Shown here in pieces: positions 9,846 to 14,971 of a stretch of DNA of 64,000 nucleotides. Made by a program: the position numbers and the translations under genes. Source of the DNA: Verrucomicrobiota bacterium (GTDB taxonomy: Bacteria; Verrucomicrobiota; Verrucomicrobiia; Verrucomicrobiales; Akkermansiaceae); assembly GCA_004294095.1 (NCBI GenBank), contig RDZR01000033.1, positions 1-64,000 of the forward strand, in the 5' to 3' direction. Below the pieces are notes generated by a model. That model was given only the letters and a program-made list of their open reading frames with translations. It made no database searches and was not told the DNA's origin. Every line of letters starts with the position of its first letter. Positions within the stretch are counted from its first letter, which is position 1.

Positions 9846-11837
9846 ATGTCCACCATGTTTTCCGAAACAGACCATCACGACTCATTAGGCGCCATGTATT
9901 CAGACTACTTTCTGGATTACGCCAGCTACGTGATTCTCGAGCGCGCCGTGCCGCATCTTTACGACGGCCTCAAGCCAGTGCAGCGCCGCATCCTTCACGC
10001 GATGGATGAAATCGATGATGGCCGTTACAACAAAGTCGCCGGCATCGTTGGCAATACGATGAATTATCACCCGCATGGCGATCAATCGATCAGCGCCGCC
10101 ATCGTGCAACTTGGCCAGAAAGAATTGCTCATCGATACCCAAGGAAATTGGGGCAACATTCTCACCGGCGATGGAGCCGCAGCCCCTCGTTACATCGAGG
10201 CGCGTCTCACACCATTTGCCAAAGAAGTCGTCTTCAATCCCAAGACCACTCAGTGGCTCGCGAGCTACGATGGACGCCGTAGAGAGCCGGACACGCTGCC
10301 GGTGAAATTTCCACTTCTGTTAGCACAGGGCGTCGAGGGCATCGCAGTCGGCCTCGCTTGTAAAATTCTGCCTCACGCATTTCACGAGCTAATCGAAGCG
10401 GCGATTGCTCACCTGCGCGAACAACCGTTCACACTTTTACCCGATTTCCCCACCGCTGGAATCATGGATGCCACCGATTATCGTGATGGCCTCCGTGGCG
10501 GGAAAATCCGCGTCCGCGCGCGCGTGCTCACCGATAAAAAAGGCATCTTGCGGATTACGGAAATTCCCTTCGGCACCACCACCGGAAATCTGATGGAATC
10601 CGTCGTCGTCGCGGCGGATAAAGGGAAAATCAAAATCGCGAAAATCGAAGATAACACCGCGGCGAATGTGGAAATTCTAGTGCATCTGCCCGCCGGTGCC
10701 GATCCCGAGCAAACGCGCGACGCGCTCTTTGCCTTCACTGATTGTGAACTCTCGATTTCTCCCAACGCCTGCGTCATCGTCGATGGCAAGCCGCAGTTCA
10801 TGGGCGTGAGCGAAATTTTGCGCCGCACCACTGAGCGCACGCGCGAGCTGCTCAAACTTGAGTTGCAAATCAAACTCAACGAACTCGCGGAAAAATGGCA
10901 CTTCAGTTCGCTCGAAAAAATCTTCATCGAAAATCGCATTTATCGCGATATCGAAGAATGCGAAACATGGCCCGATGTGCTCGCTGCGATCGCCAACGGA
11001 CTCAAGCCATTTACTCACTTGCTCAAACGCGAAGTGACCGAAGATGATCTTGTTAGACTCACGGAGATTAAAATCAAACGCATCTCAAAGTTCGATAGCT
11101 TCAAGGCCGATGATGAAATCAAGCAGCTCGAAAAACTCATCGATGAAGCTGAAAAAAACCTGCGCAACCTCACGCGCTACACGATCCGATGGTTCGAGGA
11201 ACTCGCCAAAAAATATGGCAAAGCCCACCAGCGCCTCACAGAAATCTCGTCGTTTGATCGTGTGGATCGCACCCAAGTCGTCGCCGCAACTGAGACACTT
11301 TATCTCGATGCGAAAAACGGCTTCGTCGGCTACGGGTTGAAAAAAGATGGTGAGCCGTTAGAAAAATGCTCGACTCTCGATGACGTAATCGCTTTCACCC
11401 AAGACGGGAAAATGCGCGTCGTCAAAGTCGCAGAAAAAGTCTTCGTTGGCCAAAAACCCCTGCACGTCGCTATTTTCCGCAAAGAGGAAGATTTGATTTA
11501 TTCCATGATTTTCCGCGATGGCCGCGATGGCCCGATCTTGGCAAAACGCTTCACCATCGGCGGCACCACGCGCGATAAAGAATACGATCTAACAAGAGGC
11601 AAACCCAACACCCGCGTGCTCTACCTCGCCGTCCATAAAACGAACGAAGAAAGTGCCGCGCAAATGCTGCTCGTCCATCTCAAGTCTGGCCTGCGCATGA
11701 AAAATTTGATACGCCCACTCCATTTTGCAGAATTTGGCATCAAAAGCCGATCCAGCAGTGGTAATTTAGTCACCAAGCACGGAGTTGAAAAAATCGTCCG
11801 CGCACCGAAAGATTACGATCCATCATCCAAAGCCTAA
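9846..11837 (+). CDS. parC: DNA topoisomerase IV subunit A-like (ParC/GyrA family)
   Basis: A 663-residue type IIA topoisomerase A subunit. The winged-helix core contains DGLKPVQRRIL (about 40-50), YHPHGDQS (about 74-81) and the catalytic tyrosine in APRYIEARL (Y116). Coiled-coil and tower segments follow at about residues 330-470. A short C-terminal beta-pinwheel region lacks the gyrase-specific GyrA box (QRRGGKG), which favours topoisomerase IV over gyrase. Its length is shorter than E. coli ParC (752) and similar to compact forms in Bacteroidota. No B subunit (parE/gyrB) lies beside it in this window. It is preceded by ybeY and followed 10 bp later by pyrE. Role: ATP-dependent decatenation and relaxation with the partner B subunit. 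Confidence 0.85.
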   Translation: MSTMFSETDHHDSLGAMYSDYFLDYASYVILERAVPHLYDGLKPVQRRILHAMDEIDDGRYNKVAGIVGNTMNYHPHGDQSISAAIVQLGQKELLIDTQGNWGNILTGDGAAAPRYIEARLTPFAKEVVFNPKTTQWLASYDGRRREPDTLPVKFPLLLAQGVEGIAVGLACKILPHAFHELIEAAIAHLREQPFTLLPDFPTAGIMDATDYRDGLRGGKIRVRARVLTDKKGILRITEIPFGTTTGNLMESVVVAADKGKIKIAKIEDNTAANVEILVHLPAGADPEQTRDALFAFTDCELSISPNACVIVDGKPQFMGVSEILRRTTERTRELLKLELQIKLNELAEKWHFSSLEKIFIENRIYRDIEECETWPDVLAAIANGLKPFTHLLKREVTEDDLVRLTEIKIKRISKFDSFKADDEIKQLEKLIDEAEKNLRNLTRYTIRWFEELAKKYGKAHQRLTEISSFDRVDRTQVVAATETLYLDAKNGFVGYGLKKDGEPLEKCSTLDDVIAFTQDGKMRVVKVAEKVFVGQKPLHVAIFRKEEDLIYSMIFRDGRDGPILAKRFTIGGTTRDKEYDLTRGKPNTRVLYLAVHKTNEESAAQMLLVHLKSGLRMKNLIRPLHFAEFGIKSRSSSGNLVTKHGVEKIVRAPKDYDPSSKA

Positions 11838-11846
11838 CACTTTTTT

Positions 11847-12419
11847 ATGCTCCAAATCACGCAATCACTCAAAGATTTATTGTTAGAAAAATCAGTTAGA
11901 ACAGGCTCGTTCACCTTGGCCTCGGGCAAGCAGAGCGATCTTTACATCGATTGCCGGATGACGGCGCTGGACCCATTTGGTGCCCGCTGGATCGGCCAAT
12001 TAGGCTGGCATGCCGTGCGATCGAAAATTCATTCCGAGCATCTCATCGTGCAAGCAATCGGCGGCATGACGCTAGGCGCGGATCCGATTTCACTCGCCGT
12101 GGGCATGGCCTCCGCAGTTGAGCATCCAGACGAAGCGCTGCAAGTTTTCACCGTGCGCAAGGAACCGAAAGGCCACGGCGTCGGCAAACAGATCGAAGGA
12201 AATTTCCGCTCCGGCGATGCCGTCATCGTCGTCGATGATGTGATCACCACCGGCGGATCCACGCTCAAGGCCATCGATGCAATCGAGCGCGAAGGCGGCA
12301 AAGTGGCCTTCGCCTTGGTCTTGGTCGATCGTGAAGAAGGCGGCCGCCAAGCCATCGAAGCGCGCGGAATTCACGTCATCAGTTTGTTTTCACGGACGAC
12401 GTTGTTAGGCAACGTATGA
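11847..12419 (+). CDS. pyrE: orotate phosphoribosyltransferase
   Basis: A 190-residue enzyme joining orotate and PRPP to give orotidine 5'-phosphate in pyrimidine synthesis. Visible motifs are FTLASGKQSDLYIDCR (about 22-37) and the PRPP loop VIVVDDVITTGGST (about 127-139). The last 63 bases before the final codons are duplicated 1.7 kb downstream (14040-14102), after two restriction-modification-type genes. The downstream copy continues TTGTTAGAATAA, so the ancestral protein probably ended in Leu-Leu-Glu. The present gene ends Leu-Leu-Gly-Asn-Val. The enzyme is thus complete but has a replaced C-terminal tail. Confidence 0.93.
   Translation: MLQITQSLKDLLLEKSVRTGSFTLASGKQSDLYIDCRMTALDPFGARWIGQLGWHAVRSKIHSEHLIVQAIGGMTLGADPISLAVGMASAVEHPDEALQVFTVRKEPKGHGVGKQIEGNFRSGDAVIVVDDVITTGGSTLKAIDAIEREGGKVAFALVLVDREEGGRQAIEARGIHVISLFSRTTLLGNV
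12346..12408 (+). repeat. left copy of 63-bp pyrE 3'-end direct repeat
   Basis: The sequence from GCCAAGCCATCGAAG to ACGTTGTTAG, inside pyrE, recurs at 14040-14102 with one mismatch (62 of 63 by eye). After this copy the sequence diverges to GCAACGTATGA, which supplies a new pyrE stop. Confidence 0.95.
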
Positions 12420-12467
12420 ACACTGTTTGAGCTTGACCCGAACGGCCCTCCATCGATACTAACCCTG

Positions 12468-13430
12468 ATGAATGAGTTAACCGCTGTTGAACTTTGTGCT
12501 GGGGCAGGGGGGCAAGCACTAGGCTTAGAGCATGCTGGTTTCCGCCATTTGGCTCTGGTTGAGATCGACGCTCATTGCTGTAACACTCTTAGAGCTAATA
12601 GAAAGGATTGGAATGTTATTCATCAGGATTTAAGGGAGTTTGATGGACGCCCCTTCAAAGGAGTTGATTTGCTGGCTGGTGGGCTGCCCTGCCCACCGTT
12701 TTCCGTTGCCGGTAAGCAGCTCGGCGATGCTGATGAACGTAATCTATTTCCGGAGGGCATTCGCTTGGTGAAGGAGACTCGCCCACGTGCAGTCATGCTC
12801 GAAAATGTCCGAGGTATTCTGGATGCCGTTTTTGAGGATTATCGCCAGTATATTTCTGGTGAGATTGCATCACTGGGCTACCGGACTGACTGGAGACTGC
12901 TGAATGCATCAGACTACAAAGTGCCGCAACTACGTCCACGCGTTGTTTTCATGGCGTTGCGCAACGATGTGAGAGGTGGTTTTCCGTGGCCAGCACCGTC
13001 ATTACTGCCTGCTCTAACTGTTGGTGATGCATTGCACGATTTACTTGCCTCAAAGGGTTGGATGATGGCTAAGGAGTGGCGCAAGCGCGCGAATGTGGTT
13101 GCTCCGACCATAGTTGGTGGTTCTAAGAAACACGGGGGACCGGACTTGGGGCCCACCCGCTCGAAGCGCGCGTGGGCATCGTTAGGCATAGATGGGATGG
13201 GGATTGCCAATGAGCCACCCGATAAAAATTTTGTGGGCATGCCGCGCCTCACAGTAAGAATGGCAGCTCGTGTTCAAGGTTTTCCAGATGATTGGGAGTT
13301 CACAGGAAGTAAGACAGCAGCATATCGTCAAGTAGGTAATGCATTTCCCCCGCCGGTGGCGGCGGCTGTAGCTGCTGGAATTTTTCAATCGCTCCAAGCC
13401 TCATCAGTTGCTAACATCGCGCTAGCTTAA
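12468..13430 (+). CDS. DNA (cytosine-5) methyltransferase
   Basis: A 320-residue m5C methyltransferase. Motifs in order: I, ELCAGAGGQALGLE (about 8-21); IV, GLPCPPFS with catalytic C75; VI, LENVRG (E112); VIII, QLRPRVVF (Q154, R156, R158); IX-X, RMAARVQGFPDDW and RQVGNAFPPPVA near the C-terminus. About 100 residues between motifs VIII and IX form a short target-recognition region containing GGSKKHGGPDLGPTR. The specificity cannot be read. The HNH nuclease gene follows after 6 bp, so the pair looks like a type II restriction-modification system with the methyltransferase first. Codon use is less GC-biased than the flanking housekeeping genes, in keeping with acquisition. Confidence 0.92.
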   Translation: MNELTAVELCAGAGGQALGLEHAGFRHLALVEIDAHCCNTLRANRKDWNVIHQDLREFDGRPFKGVDLLAGGLPCPPFSVAGKQLGDADERNLFPEGIRLVKETRPRAVMLENVRGILDAVFEDYRQYISGEIASLGYRTDWRLLNASDYKVPQLRPRVVFMALRNDVRGGFPWPAPSLLPALTVGDALHDLLASKGWMMAKEWRKRANVVAPTIVGGSKKHGGPDLGPTRSKRAWASLGIDGMGIANEPPDKNFVGMPRLTVRMAARVQGFPDDWEFTGSKTAAYRQVGNAFPPPVAAAVAAGIFQSLQASSVANIALA

Positions 13431-13436
13431 TCAATT

Positions 13437-14018
13437 ATGGGGGCACGCGACAAGTTGAGATCATATTTCCTGACCCACATAGGCAAGGTCATGAGCTCCA
13501 ATGAGCTCAGAGAAGTGGCCGGGGGAATTACTGAATGGGCTCGTAGGGTCCGTGAATTGAGAACGGAGGAAGGTTATCAGATTTTAACCCATAACGATCG
13601 AGATGAATTGAAGCCTGGGCAATATTTATTGTTAGACCCGGCACCCAAGCCAGCATTCGAGCGCGCAATATCCAAAGAGACACGGGCTATCGTATTAGAT
13701 CGCAATGGTTTTACATGTCAGATGTGTGGGGCAGTCGCTGGTGAGCCACATCCTGAAGATACGACTCGTCGCACTCGTTTGCACATTGGTCACGTGATTG
13801 ATAAATCAGTTGGAGGTTCGGATGAACCAAGTAACCTTCGCGCCATATGCTCAATGTGTAATGAGGGCGCTTCAAATGTTACTTTGGAACGTCCCAAAGC
13901 TGATAAGCTACTAATCCAGATACGCCGTGCCCCGTCTAATGATCAACTCCAAGTGCTAAAGTGGCTTATCGCTAAATTTCCGCGCCAAGCATTTGAATTT
14001 GCGACCTCTCTTCAGTAA
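13437..14018 (+). CDS. HNH endonuclease, putative cognate restriction enzyme
   Basis: A 193-residue protein. The first 60 residues look like a small winged-helix DNA-binding region (IGKVMSSNELREVAG, TEWARRVRELRTEEGYQI). The second half is a zinc-supported HNH nuclease: C94-x2-C97, then H116-I-G-H119-V with D122, GGSDEPSN133L, and C138-x2-C141-N. This order (CxxC, HxxH, N, CxxC) matches HNH enzymes of type II restriction systems and McrA-like nucleases. It begins 6 bp after the methyltransferase stop and is probably translated from the same message. Whether it cuts unmodified DNA (cognate restriction) or modified DNA cannot be told from sequence alone. Confidence 0.85.
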   Translation: MGARDKLRSYFLTHIGKVMSSNELREVAGGITEWARRVRELRTEEGYQILTHNDRDELKPGQYLLLDPAPKPAFERAISKETRAIVLDRNGFTCQMCGAVAGEPHPEDTTRRTRLHIGHVIDKSVGGSDEPSNLRAICSMCNEGASNVTLERPKADKLLIQIRRAPSNDQLQVLKWLIAKFPRQAFEFATSLQ

Positions 14019-14039
14019 TGAAAGGTCCAAATAAGCTAA

Positions 14040-14102
14040 GCCAAGCCATCGAAGCCCGCGGAATTCACGTCATCAGTTTGTTTTCACGGACGACGTTGTT
14101 AG
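14040..14102 (+). repeat. right copy of 63-bp pyrE 3'-end direct repeat
   Basis: This second copy of the pyrE C-terminal coding segment is not preceded by pyrE sequence. It runs into GAATAA, which is probably the original pyrE ending, 13 bp before the next start codon at 14120. Confidence 0.95.
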
Positions 14103-14119
14103 AATAACTCTCATCATTC

Positions 14120-14395
14120 ATGCCAGCTCCGCAAAAAGGATACAAAACGATCAATCACCACGATGTGCAATATCGCTGGATCATGCAAAATTTGCGCGGC
14201 GAGAGTGAGCTCATCGTCTTTGCAGCGGATGCAGTGCGCGGGCAAAGGTTGATCGCGAAATTGCCAAAAATTGTGAGCTATGATCGTGTGACGGAGGCGA
14301 TTGATTTTGCGAAAACGAATGGATGGATGCCGCATCAAGCGGGCAATGATTTCCACTGCGCATATCGGCGAGGGGCATTTCATCTCGATGGCTAA
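14120..14395 (+). CDS. small conserved-looking protein, unknown function
   Basis: A 91-residue soluble basic protein with no signal peptide. Recognisable features are an N-terminal YKTINHHDVQYRWI segment and a C-terminal FHCAYRRGAFHLDG. The composition and the close spacing to rluE (6 bp after its stop) support a real gene. Before insertion of the island it would have followed pyrE directly. I do not recognise a named domain and infer no function. Confidence 0.55.
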   Translation: MPAPQKGYKTINHHDVQYRWIMQNLRGESELIVFAADAVRGQRLIAKLPKIVSYDRVTEAIDFAKTNGWMPHQAGNDFHCAYRRGAFHLDG

Positions 14396-14401
14396 GTTCC
14401 G

Positions 14402-14971
14402 ATGTGGATTGCATTTCATAAGCCCTACGGCGTGCTTTGCCAGTTCACACCAGAGCTGGCTGGGCAGCGCACGCTTGCTGATTTTGGATTTCCGAAACAC
14501 GTCTATCCGTTAGGCCGGTTGGATATGGATTCGGAAGGGCTGCTACTGCTTTGCGATGAAGCTGGAGTGAATCATCGGCTGTTAGATCCTACGGCTGCCC
14601 ATCCGCGCAGCTATTGGGCGCAGGTGGAAGGTGTGCCACAGTTGGCAGATGTTGCAAAATTAGCGCGTGGGGGAATCCAAATTCGTGGCGATCTCACGCG
14701 ACCATGCGAGGCGGAAATTTTGTTAGAGCCGCCGGTTCTTAGCGAACGTGAGCCGCCTGTCCGTTTTCGCAAAGCGATCCCAACGTCTTGGCTACGGCTT
14801 TCCTTGGTGGAAGGGAAAAATCGCCAAGTGCGCCGCATGACCGCTGCCGTCGGCTTGCCGACGCTGCGCTTGATTCGCCACTCGATCGGCACCTTGCAAC
14901 TCGGAACTTTACCGTGCGGACAATGGAAAGAACTTTCACCCACGGAAATTCAATCGGCGTGGGCTCATTGA
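14402..14971 (+). CDS. rluE: 23S rRNA pseudouridine synthase, RluE-like
   Basis: A 189-residue member of the RsuA/RluB/RluE group without an S4 domain, the usual RluE length. The catalytic region is VYPLGRLDMDSEGLLLL with Asp41. The C-terminal GKNRQVRRMTAAVGLPTLRLIR is the family signature. E. coli RluE makes pseudouridine 2457 in 23S rRNA; the same target is inferred. The gene lies in a tight plus-strand group with the small gene upstream and tilS downstream. Confidence 0.88.
   Translation: MWIAFHKPYGVLCQFTPELAGQRTLADFGFPKHVYPLGRLDMDSEGLLLLCDEAGVNHRLLDPTAAHPRSYWAQVEGVPQLADVAKLARGGIQIRGDLTRPCEAEILLEPPVLSEREPPVRFRKAIPTSWLRLSLVEGKNRQVRRMTAAVGLPTLRLIRHSIGTLQLGTLPCGQWKELSPTEIQSAWAH

What the first reader, a model, noticed from the sequence alone, without database searches (positions are those of the whole stretch)
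12346..14102. Two-gene restriction-modification island inserted at the 3' end of pyrE with a 63-bp target duplication
The sequence shows a C5-methyltransferase gene and an HNH nuclease gene between two copies (62 of 63 identical by eye) of the last part of pyrE. Only one copy belongs to a full pyrE. The right copy ends with what is probably the original stop (GAATAA), beside the next gene. The left copy has gained a new tail (GCAACGTATGA). The island has no integrase, so this looks like insertion with long target duplication, as described for some R-M genes, or like a pyrE attachment site served in trans.
Basis: partly seen in the sequence, partly recalled or inferred. Interest (0 to 1): 0.8.

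Follow-up and report, generated by a model that had tools for sequence, protein, structure and literature searches.

The report
Integron-derived restriction-modification cassette beside pyrE
A two-gene DNA-cutting defence system sits at the end of the gene pyrE between two copies of that gene's last ~60 bases; its left edge is exactly where integron gene cassettes begin, which suggests an integron integrase put it there outside any integron, with a copy of the target in place of the cassette's own recombination site.

Summary
A C5-methyltransferase gene (M) and an HNH nuclease gene (R) lie between two 63-bp copies (one mismatch) of the pyrE 3' end, inside a compact operon. M-R is a derelict integron gene cassette. 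Homology with its closest relative, which lies in a cassette array, starts exactly at G^TTAGGC (12404/12405), the integron crossover motif: 69% identity to the right, 22% to the left. Relatives of M-R in other phyla are ordinary cassettes with attC hairpins. Integron integrases are common in this genus (39 of 73 genomes over cut-off); this genome shows only a C-terminal fragment at a contig end. In place of attC stands a second copy of the 59 bases of pyrE left of the crossover. That is the architecture of the 'unusual DeltaattI' cassettes of class 1/2 integrons, here at a genomic site (a 'DeltaattG' cassette). The integron origin and left junction are well supported. How attC was replaced is inference. 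No empty pyrE site and no attC were found in this genome. A sister M-R beside pth shows that duplications around R-M genes need not share one cause. New variant of a known kind.

The parts
11847..12419 (+). pyrE (orotate phosphoribosyltransferase), full length; last codons GGC AAC GTA TGA come from the insert
   Evidence: TIGR00336 138 bits; sequence
12346..12408 (+). left copy of the 63-bp repeat; bases 12346-12404 are pyrE, TTAG (12405-12408) can be insert or pyrE
12404..12410 (+). integron core site GTTAGGC (GTTRRRY); inferred crossover between 12404 and 12405
   Evidence: homology with L144 cassette starts at 12404; 69% right vs 22% left
12405..14039 (+). insert of integron-cassette origin (leader, M, R, remnant of attC)
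12468..13430 (+). C5-cytosine DNA methyltransferase (M), motifs GGLPCPPFS, ENV, QLRPR, GNAFPPP intact
13437..14018 (+). HNH endonuclease (R), two CxxC pairs and HNH core invariant in 26 homologues
14025..14031 (+). GTCCAAA, possible decayed inverse core (RYYYAAC) of the lost attC, where L144 and L145 carry GCCCAAC
   Evidence: alignment; weak by itself
14040..14102 (+). right copy of the repeat: 59 nt of pyrE (14040-14098) standing where attC should be, then TTAG
14098..14107 (+). target side of the crossover, GTTAGAATAA, with the probable original pyrE stop TAA 14105-14107
14120..14395 (+). next operon gene, small uncharacterised protein (context)
   Evidence: no Pfam match
14402..14971 (+). 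rluE-like pseudouridine synthase (context)

Best explanation
The M-R pair is an integron gene cassette that an integron integrase (IntI) acting in trans inserted outside any integron, at the GTT of ..ACGTT-G^TTAGAATAA at the 3' end of pyrE (an 'attG'-type genomic site). The left junction (pyrE G joined to the cassette's own 5' end TTAGGC) is what IntI makes. At the right end the cassette's attC hairpin was lost just after its inverse core and is replaced by a copy of the 59 bases of pyrE that lie left of the crossover. The result, [59 nt]G^TTAGGC-M-R-[59 nt]G^TTAGAA, has the architecture of the 'unusual DeltaattI' cassettes of class 1/2 integrons, with pyrE in the role of attI. pyrE stays complete with a new C-terminus (LLGNV for LLE), and M-R reads in the direction of the operon. 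Shown: the repeat, both gene families, the cassette boundary at G^TTAGGC, cassette status of relatives, IntI in the genus. Inferred: that IntI made this insertion; how the 59-nt copy arose (a template switch at the attC hairpin when the single-strand intermediate is replicated, or staggered repair); that 63-bp recombination could remove the insert and restore LLE-stop.
For: Homology with the closest M-R (L144, 90/89% aa, clade support 0.99) starts exactly at GTTAGGC: 44/64 identical to the right, 14/64 to the left, ungapped. In L144 an attC-like hairpin of the preceding cassette ends at that point. M-R relatives are cassettes elsewhere: L207 (perfect R''/R' complement, attC fold z -4.6), L145 (attC fold z -5.5), L182, L187, L121, and L195 in an array of at least nine attC; the attC next to R lies on the R strand in every case. 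IntI over cut-off in 39 of 73 genus genomes and 0 of 14 controls; own genome has an IntI C-terminal fragment. DeltaattI cassettes are described in PMC12901181; IntI off-target GTT/GTTRRRY sites in PMC10127599.
Against: No attC was found in this genome with a model that finds them in relatives (E<=1). The IntI is only ~31 residues at a contig end. The right end shows at best a decayed inverse core, and the far duplication boundary (12346/14040) has no GTT/AAC core, so that end is not an IntI product. There is no empty-site relative for pyrE. A sister M-R at pth (L204) has a 192-bp gene-end duplication without GTT ends, so such duplications can arise otherwise.
Confidence: 0.7

Rival explanations
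1. Insertion with long target duplication as proposed for R-M genes in general: a linear R-M fragment is joined at a long staggered break in pyrE, without a site-specific recombinase.
For: The R-M pair is flanked by a long copy of the target. R-M genes inserting with 'long and variable target duplications' are stated in PMC3031569. Other M-R loci also have flanking repeats: 8 of 95 at 40 bits or more against 1.4% of control positions.
Against: The insert starts exactly at a cassette core (G^TTAGGC). Of the other flanking repeats, those of L144 and L145 are integron attC repeats, L096 is present three times in its locus, and L193, L125, L201 look like dispersed repeats. At pth, related genomes carry M-R without any duplication.
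Confidence: 0.15
2. Single-crossover homologous integration of a circle that carried M-R plus a captured pyrE tail from a close relative.
For: It gives a direct repeat and a full gene on one side. The one mismatch is synonymous, as between two functional alleles. The L204 pth copies differ mostly at third codon positions, which fits import from a related strain there.
Against: The left copy changes from pyrE to cassette sequence exactly at the integron core. A circle whose pyrE piece happens to end at GTT next to the cassette start is itself what a DeltaattG cassette circle would be.
Confidence: 0.07
3. A different tyrosine-recombinase island using the pyrE 3' end as its att site (long identity block, gene 3' end restored).
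For: Gene 3' ends are classic att sites and the gene stays whole.
Against: No integrase and no island beyond two genes; no further copy of the 63-bp block in the genome and none with other cargo in the family search; the left boundary is an integron core.
Confidence: 0.05
4. Assembly artefact or older tandem duplication of the pyrE end.
For: The contig comes from a 113-contig assembly; the repeat is short; reads were not available.
Against: The two copies differ by a base and have different unique flanks on both sides; removing insert plus one copy restores a compact operon (12-bp gap between genes).
Confidence: 0.03

Closest known systems
Unusual DeltaattI-type gene cassettes of class 1 and 2 integrons (PMC12901181, citing Partridge 2000/2009)
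   Same: Cassette whose attC is replaced by a partial copy of the recipient site, ending at the G of the crossover; same architecture site-ORF-Delta-site; copy lengths there 14-244 nt, here 59.
   Different: Recipient is a housekeeping gene (pyrE), not attI1/attI2; not in an integron; cargo is a two-gene R-M system; host is a verrucomicrobium.
Cassette insertion at genomic attG / secondary sites (Loot 2024, cited in PMC11023631 and PMC12444791; GTT/GTTRRRY sites in PMC10127599)
   Same: Insertion outside the integron at a bare GTT core.
   Different: Those carry their attC; here attC is gone and a target copy is present. Natural, not experimental.
R-M gene insertion with long target duplication (Nobusato 2000, Furuta 2010, as cited in PMC3031569)
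   Same: R-M pair flanked by a long copy of its target.
   Different: Left junction is an integron crossover; no empty site shown here.
R-M genes as integron cassettes (restriction and methylation listed among cassette functions, PMC8618304)
   Same: Same kind of cargo; relatives of this very M-R pair are such cassettes.
   Different: This copy lies alone in an operon of core genes.

Membership tests
Integron gene cassette (canonical) | 5' boundary at G^TTRRRY | tested here: met
   GTTAGGC 12404-12410; homology with the L144 cassette starts there
Integron gene cassette (canonical) | attC site 3' of the gene | tested here: not met
   Replaced by a pyrE copy; fold z +0.4; no attC by model R1 in this genome
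Integron gene cassette (canonical) | homologues are cassettes in arrays | tested here: met
   L144, L145, L182, L195, L207, L187, L121
Integron gene cassette (canonical) | integron integrase in the cell | tested here: inconclusive
   C-terminal fragment ending in GLGVMSPLD at contig end; full IntI common in genus
DeltaattI-type unusual cassette | attC replaced by partial copy of the recipient site up to the G crossover | tested here: met
   59 nt of pyrE on both sides, each followed by TT at G^TT
DeltaattI-type unusual cassette | recipient site is attI | tested here: not met
   Recipient is the pyrE 3' end; hence proposed 'DeltaattG' type
attG insertion | GTT core at the target | tested here: met
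   GTTAGAA 14098-14104
attG insertion | site used by IntI | not testable with these tools
   needs a recombination assay
R-M insertion with long target duplication | target copy on both sides of the R-M genes | tested here: met
R-M insertion with long target duplication | empty site with one copy in a close relative | tested here: inconclusive
   No close relative for pyrE; for the sister case at pth empty sites exist
Type II restriction-modification pair | C5-MTase with catalytic motifs beside a nuclease gene | tested here: met
   M found beside R in nearly all of the 80 genome loci
Type II restriction-modification pair | cuts and methylates the same site | not testable with these tools
   no methylome, no assay
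Druantia | DruE helicase and partner genes beside DruM | tested here: not met
   M matches the DruM2 profile but only M and R lie between pyrE and the next operon gene

The most novel reading that the evidence does not exclude
Integron integrases insert cassettes at genomic GTT sites and can convert them on the spot into attC-less 'DeltaattG' cassettes flanked by copies of the target; some of the long target duplications described around R-M genes are such scars, which stay mobile through the duplicated target rather than through attC.
Probability: 0.3. Interest if true: 0.8.

Novelty: new variant of a known kind. Interest (0 to 1): 0.58.

Why it matters
It would be a natural, chromosomal example of a cassette whose attC was replaced by its target, so far described only for attI in class 1/2 integrons. 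It would also give a concrete, testable mechanism for at least some of the unexplained long target duplications around R-M genes, and show that an integron can feed a selfish defence module into a core-gene operon without breaking the host gene.

Tried and rejected
Empty pyrE site in the genus and family: pyrE neighbours differ in every relative examined. R-M long target duplication as a uniform cause: other repeats turned out to be attC (L144, L145), dispersed repeats, or the pth case without GTT ends. pyrE end as a hidden attC hairpin: no fold signal. Own-genome attC array: none found. Tyrosine recombinases in the own genome: C17 is XerC/D-like, C105 a different integrase; only the C21 end fragment is IntI-like. 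Naming the enzyme by structure: R model pTM 0.41, best matches HNH proteins such as EcoKMcrA with E 0.002 at best; recognition site unknown. Foreign islands at pyrE in relatives: none seen.

Full report
Observation. The window holds a compact operon on the + strand: a topoisomerase subunit gene (9846-11837), pyrE, a small unknown gene (14120-14395), rluE-like (14402-14971) and tilS. Two genes interrupt it just after pyrE. The two 63-bp copies of the pyrE end are at 12346-12408 and 14040-14102 with one, synonymous, difference. This is the only direct repeat of 30 bp or more within 6 kb in the 64-kb window. In about 1.2 Mb more of this genome the only others are two CRISPR-like clusters and one 84-bp, 92% pair. 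Removing the insert and one copy leaves pyrE ending LLE-TAA 12 bp before the next gene, similar to the other gaps of this operon.

Genes. M (320 aa) is a C5-cytosine methyltransferase with all motifs. R (193 aa) has an HNH core with two CxxC pairs, invariant in 26 homologues. The model suggests an N-terminal winged-helix-like part and an HNH part, with weak overall confidence (pTM 0.41); best solved-structure matches are HNH enzymes such as EcoKMcrA, none at E below 0.001. The pair is widespread: 324 candidate stretches with an R relative in one genome scan, and M beside R in nearly all of the 80 loci kept, from Bacteria of many phyla and one archaeal MAG. This fits a horizontally moving type II R-M system; the recognition site is unknown.

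The left edge is an integron crossover. The closest M-R relative is L144 (90% and 89% aa), in a MAG titled Verrucomicrobiaceae, same family as the window genome; the two are sisters with support 0.99. DNA homology starts exactly at window 12404, the G of GTTAGGC. Over 64 ungapped bases to the right identity is 69%; over 64 to the left it is 22%. GTTRRRY is the integron core site with the crossover after the G. In L144 the base before this point is the end of an attC-like hairpin of the preceding cassette (R'' TCCGAAC, R' GTTAGGA, arms CACCCACTAGC/GCTAGCGGGTG; its fold energy alone is unremarkable, z -1.3). L144's other repeats are attC-like too, and its genome has a full IntI (327 bits).

Relatives are gene cassettes. 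Outside the window genome, M-R is followed by a canonical attC in L207 (62 bp, R'' GCCTAAC exactly complementary to the cassette's own 5' core GTTAGGC; fold z -4.6), L145 (112 bp, GCCCAAC/GTTGGGC, z -5.5), L182 (z -2.6), L187 and L121. L195 has at least nine attC in 12.6 kb around M-R. The covariance model (A2, R1) was built from eight attC that include several of these, so its hits on them are not independent; further hits at L182, L195 and L145 sites outside the training set are. Only 8-9 of 94 M-R loci show such sites, so being a cassette is one of several lifestyles of this pair.

The integrase. The own genome shows an IntI-like C-terminus (..ILGHEDITTTEIYLHVAVGENGLGVMSPLDD) at the very end of contig C21; its best family is TIGR02249. 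The rest of the gene is not in the assembly. Full-length integron integrases are frequent in the genus: 39 of 73 genomes over the curated cut-off, 0 of 14 controls. No attC was detected in the own genome, so a resident array is not shown.

The right edge. After the R stop, where L144 and L145 carry GCCCAAC, the window has GTCCAAA and eight more bases. Then comes the copy of the 59 pyrE bases that lie left of the crossover, then G^TTAGAATAA, the target. So the structure is [59]G^TTAGGC-M-R-[59]G^TTAGAA. Among known things this matches the 'unusual DeltaattI' cassettes, in which attC is replaced by 14-244 nt of the recipient attI left of the crossover and which IntI1 can still excise (PMC12901181); their origin is described there as unresolved. 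The recipient here is pyrE, hence a 'DeltaattG' type. The junction at 12346/14040 has no core site, so I infer that this end was not made by IntI but by copying: for example the new strand leaves the attC hairpin during replication of the single-strand intermediate and restarts 59 bases upstream of the insertion point on an unmodified copy. That is inference only.

Controls and a counter-example. Flanking repeats of 40 bits or more occur in 8 of 95 M-R loci against 1.4% of same-sized control positions. Looked at singly they differ in cause: attC repeats (L144, L145), probable dispersed repeats (L096, L193, L125, L201), and one real gene-end duplication. That one is L204 (Robiginitomaculum MAG): M-R beside pth, with 192 bp of the pth end on the far side, 94% identical, mismatches mainly at third codon positions, no GTT at the ends. 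Related genomes show the empty site (G638, G627 and others), M-R without any duplication (G625; G630 as far as its contig goes), or a decayed M-R (G624). So M-R does enter gene 3' ends, but a duplication need not accompany the entry and can have other causes. This lowers any claim that all such duplications are integron scars.

Verdict. Observation confirmed; interpretation partly supported. What it works like: an integron cassette at a genomic GTT site whose attC was replaced by its target. What it is a member of: not a canonical cassette, since attC was tested and is not there. Confidence 0.7 for the combined reading; higher for the cassette origin of the left boundary, lower for how the duplication formed.

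Noticed in passing
whole window; about 1.3 Mb of the own genome sampled: The tetranucleotide GTAC is almost eliminated: 0 in the window, 17 in 1.305 Mb against 1328 expected (next lowest palindrome, CTAG, has ratio 0.62), 10 of the 17 in one 3.65-kb contig (C60 = L318). Genus relatives show only mild avoidance (95 vs 234)..
   Followed up: partly
whole window: GTTAG/CTAAC is the most over-represented pentamer (145 vs 71 expected, both strands), often as TTG TTA Gnn in genes; it also makes potential integron cores frequent.
   Followed up: partly
own genome C5 (L285:2145-2521) and C79 (L337:12189-12724): Two CRISPR-like arrays of about 36-bp repeats.
   Followed up: no
L204 and relatives G625, G630, G624, G638, G627: The same R-M pair sits beside pth in several related genomes, intact, decayed or absent, with a 192-bp pth-end duplication in only one: a good natural series for studying R-M gain and loss.
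   Followed up: partly
own genome C21 end (L229:8450-8541): Truncated integron integrase gene at a contig end; the array, if any, is unassembled.
   Followed up: partly
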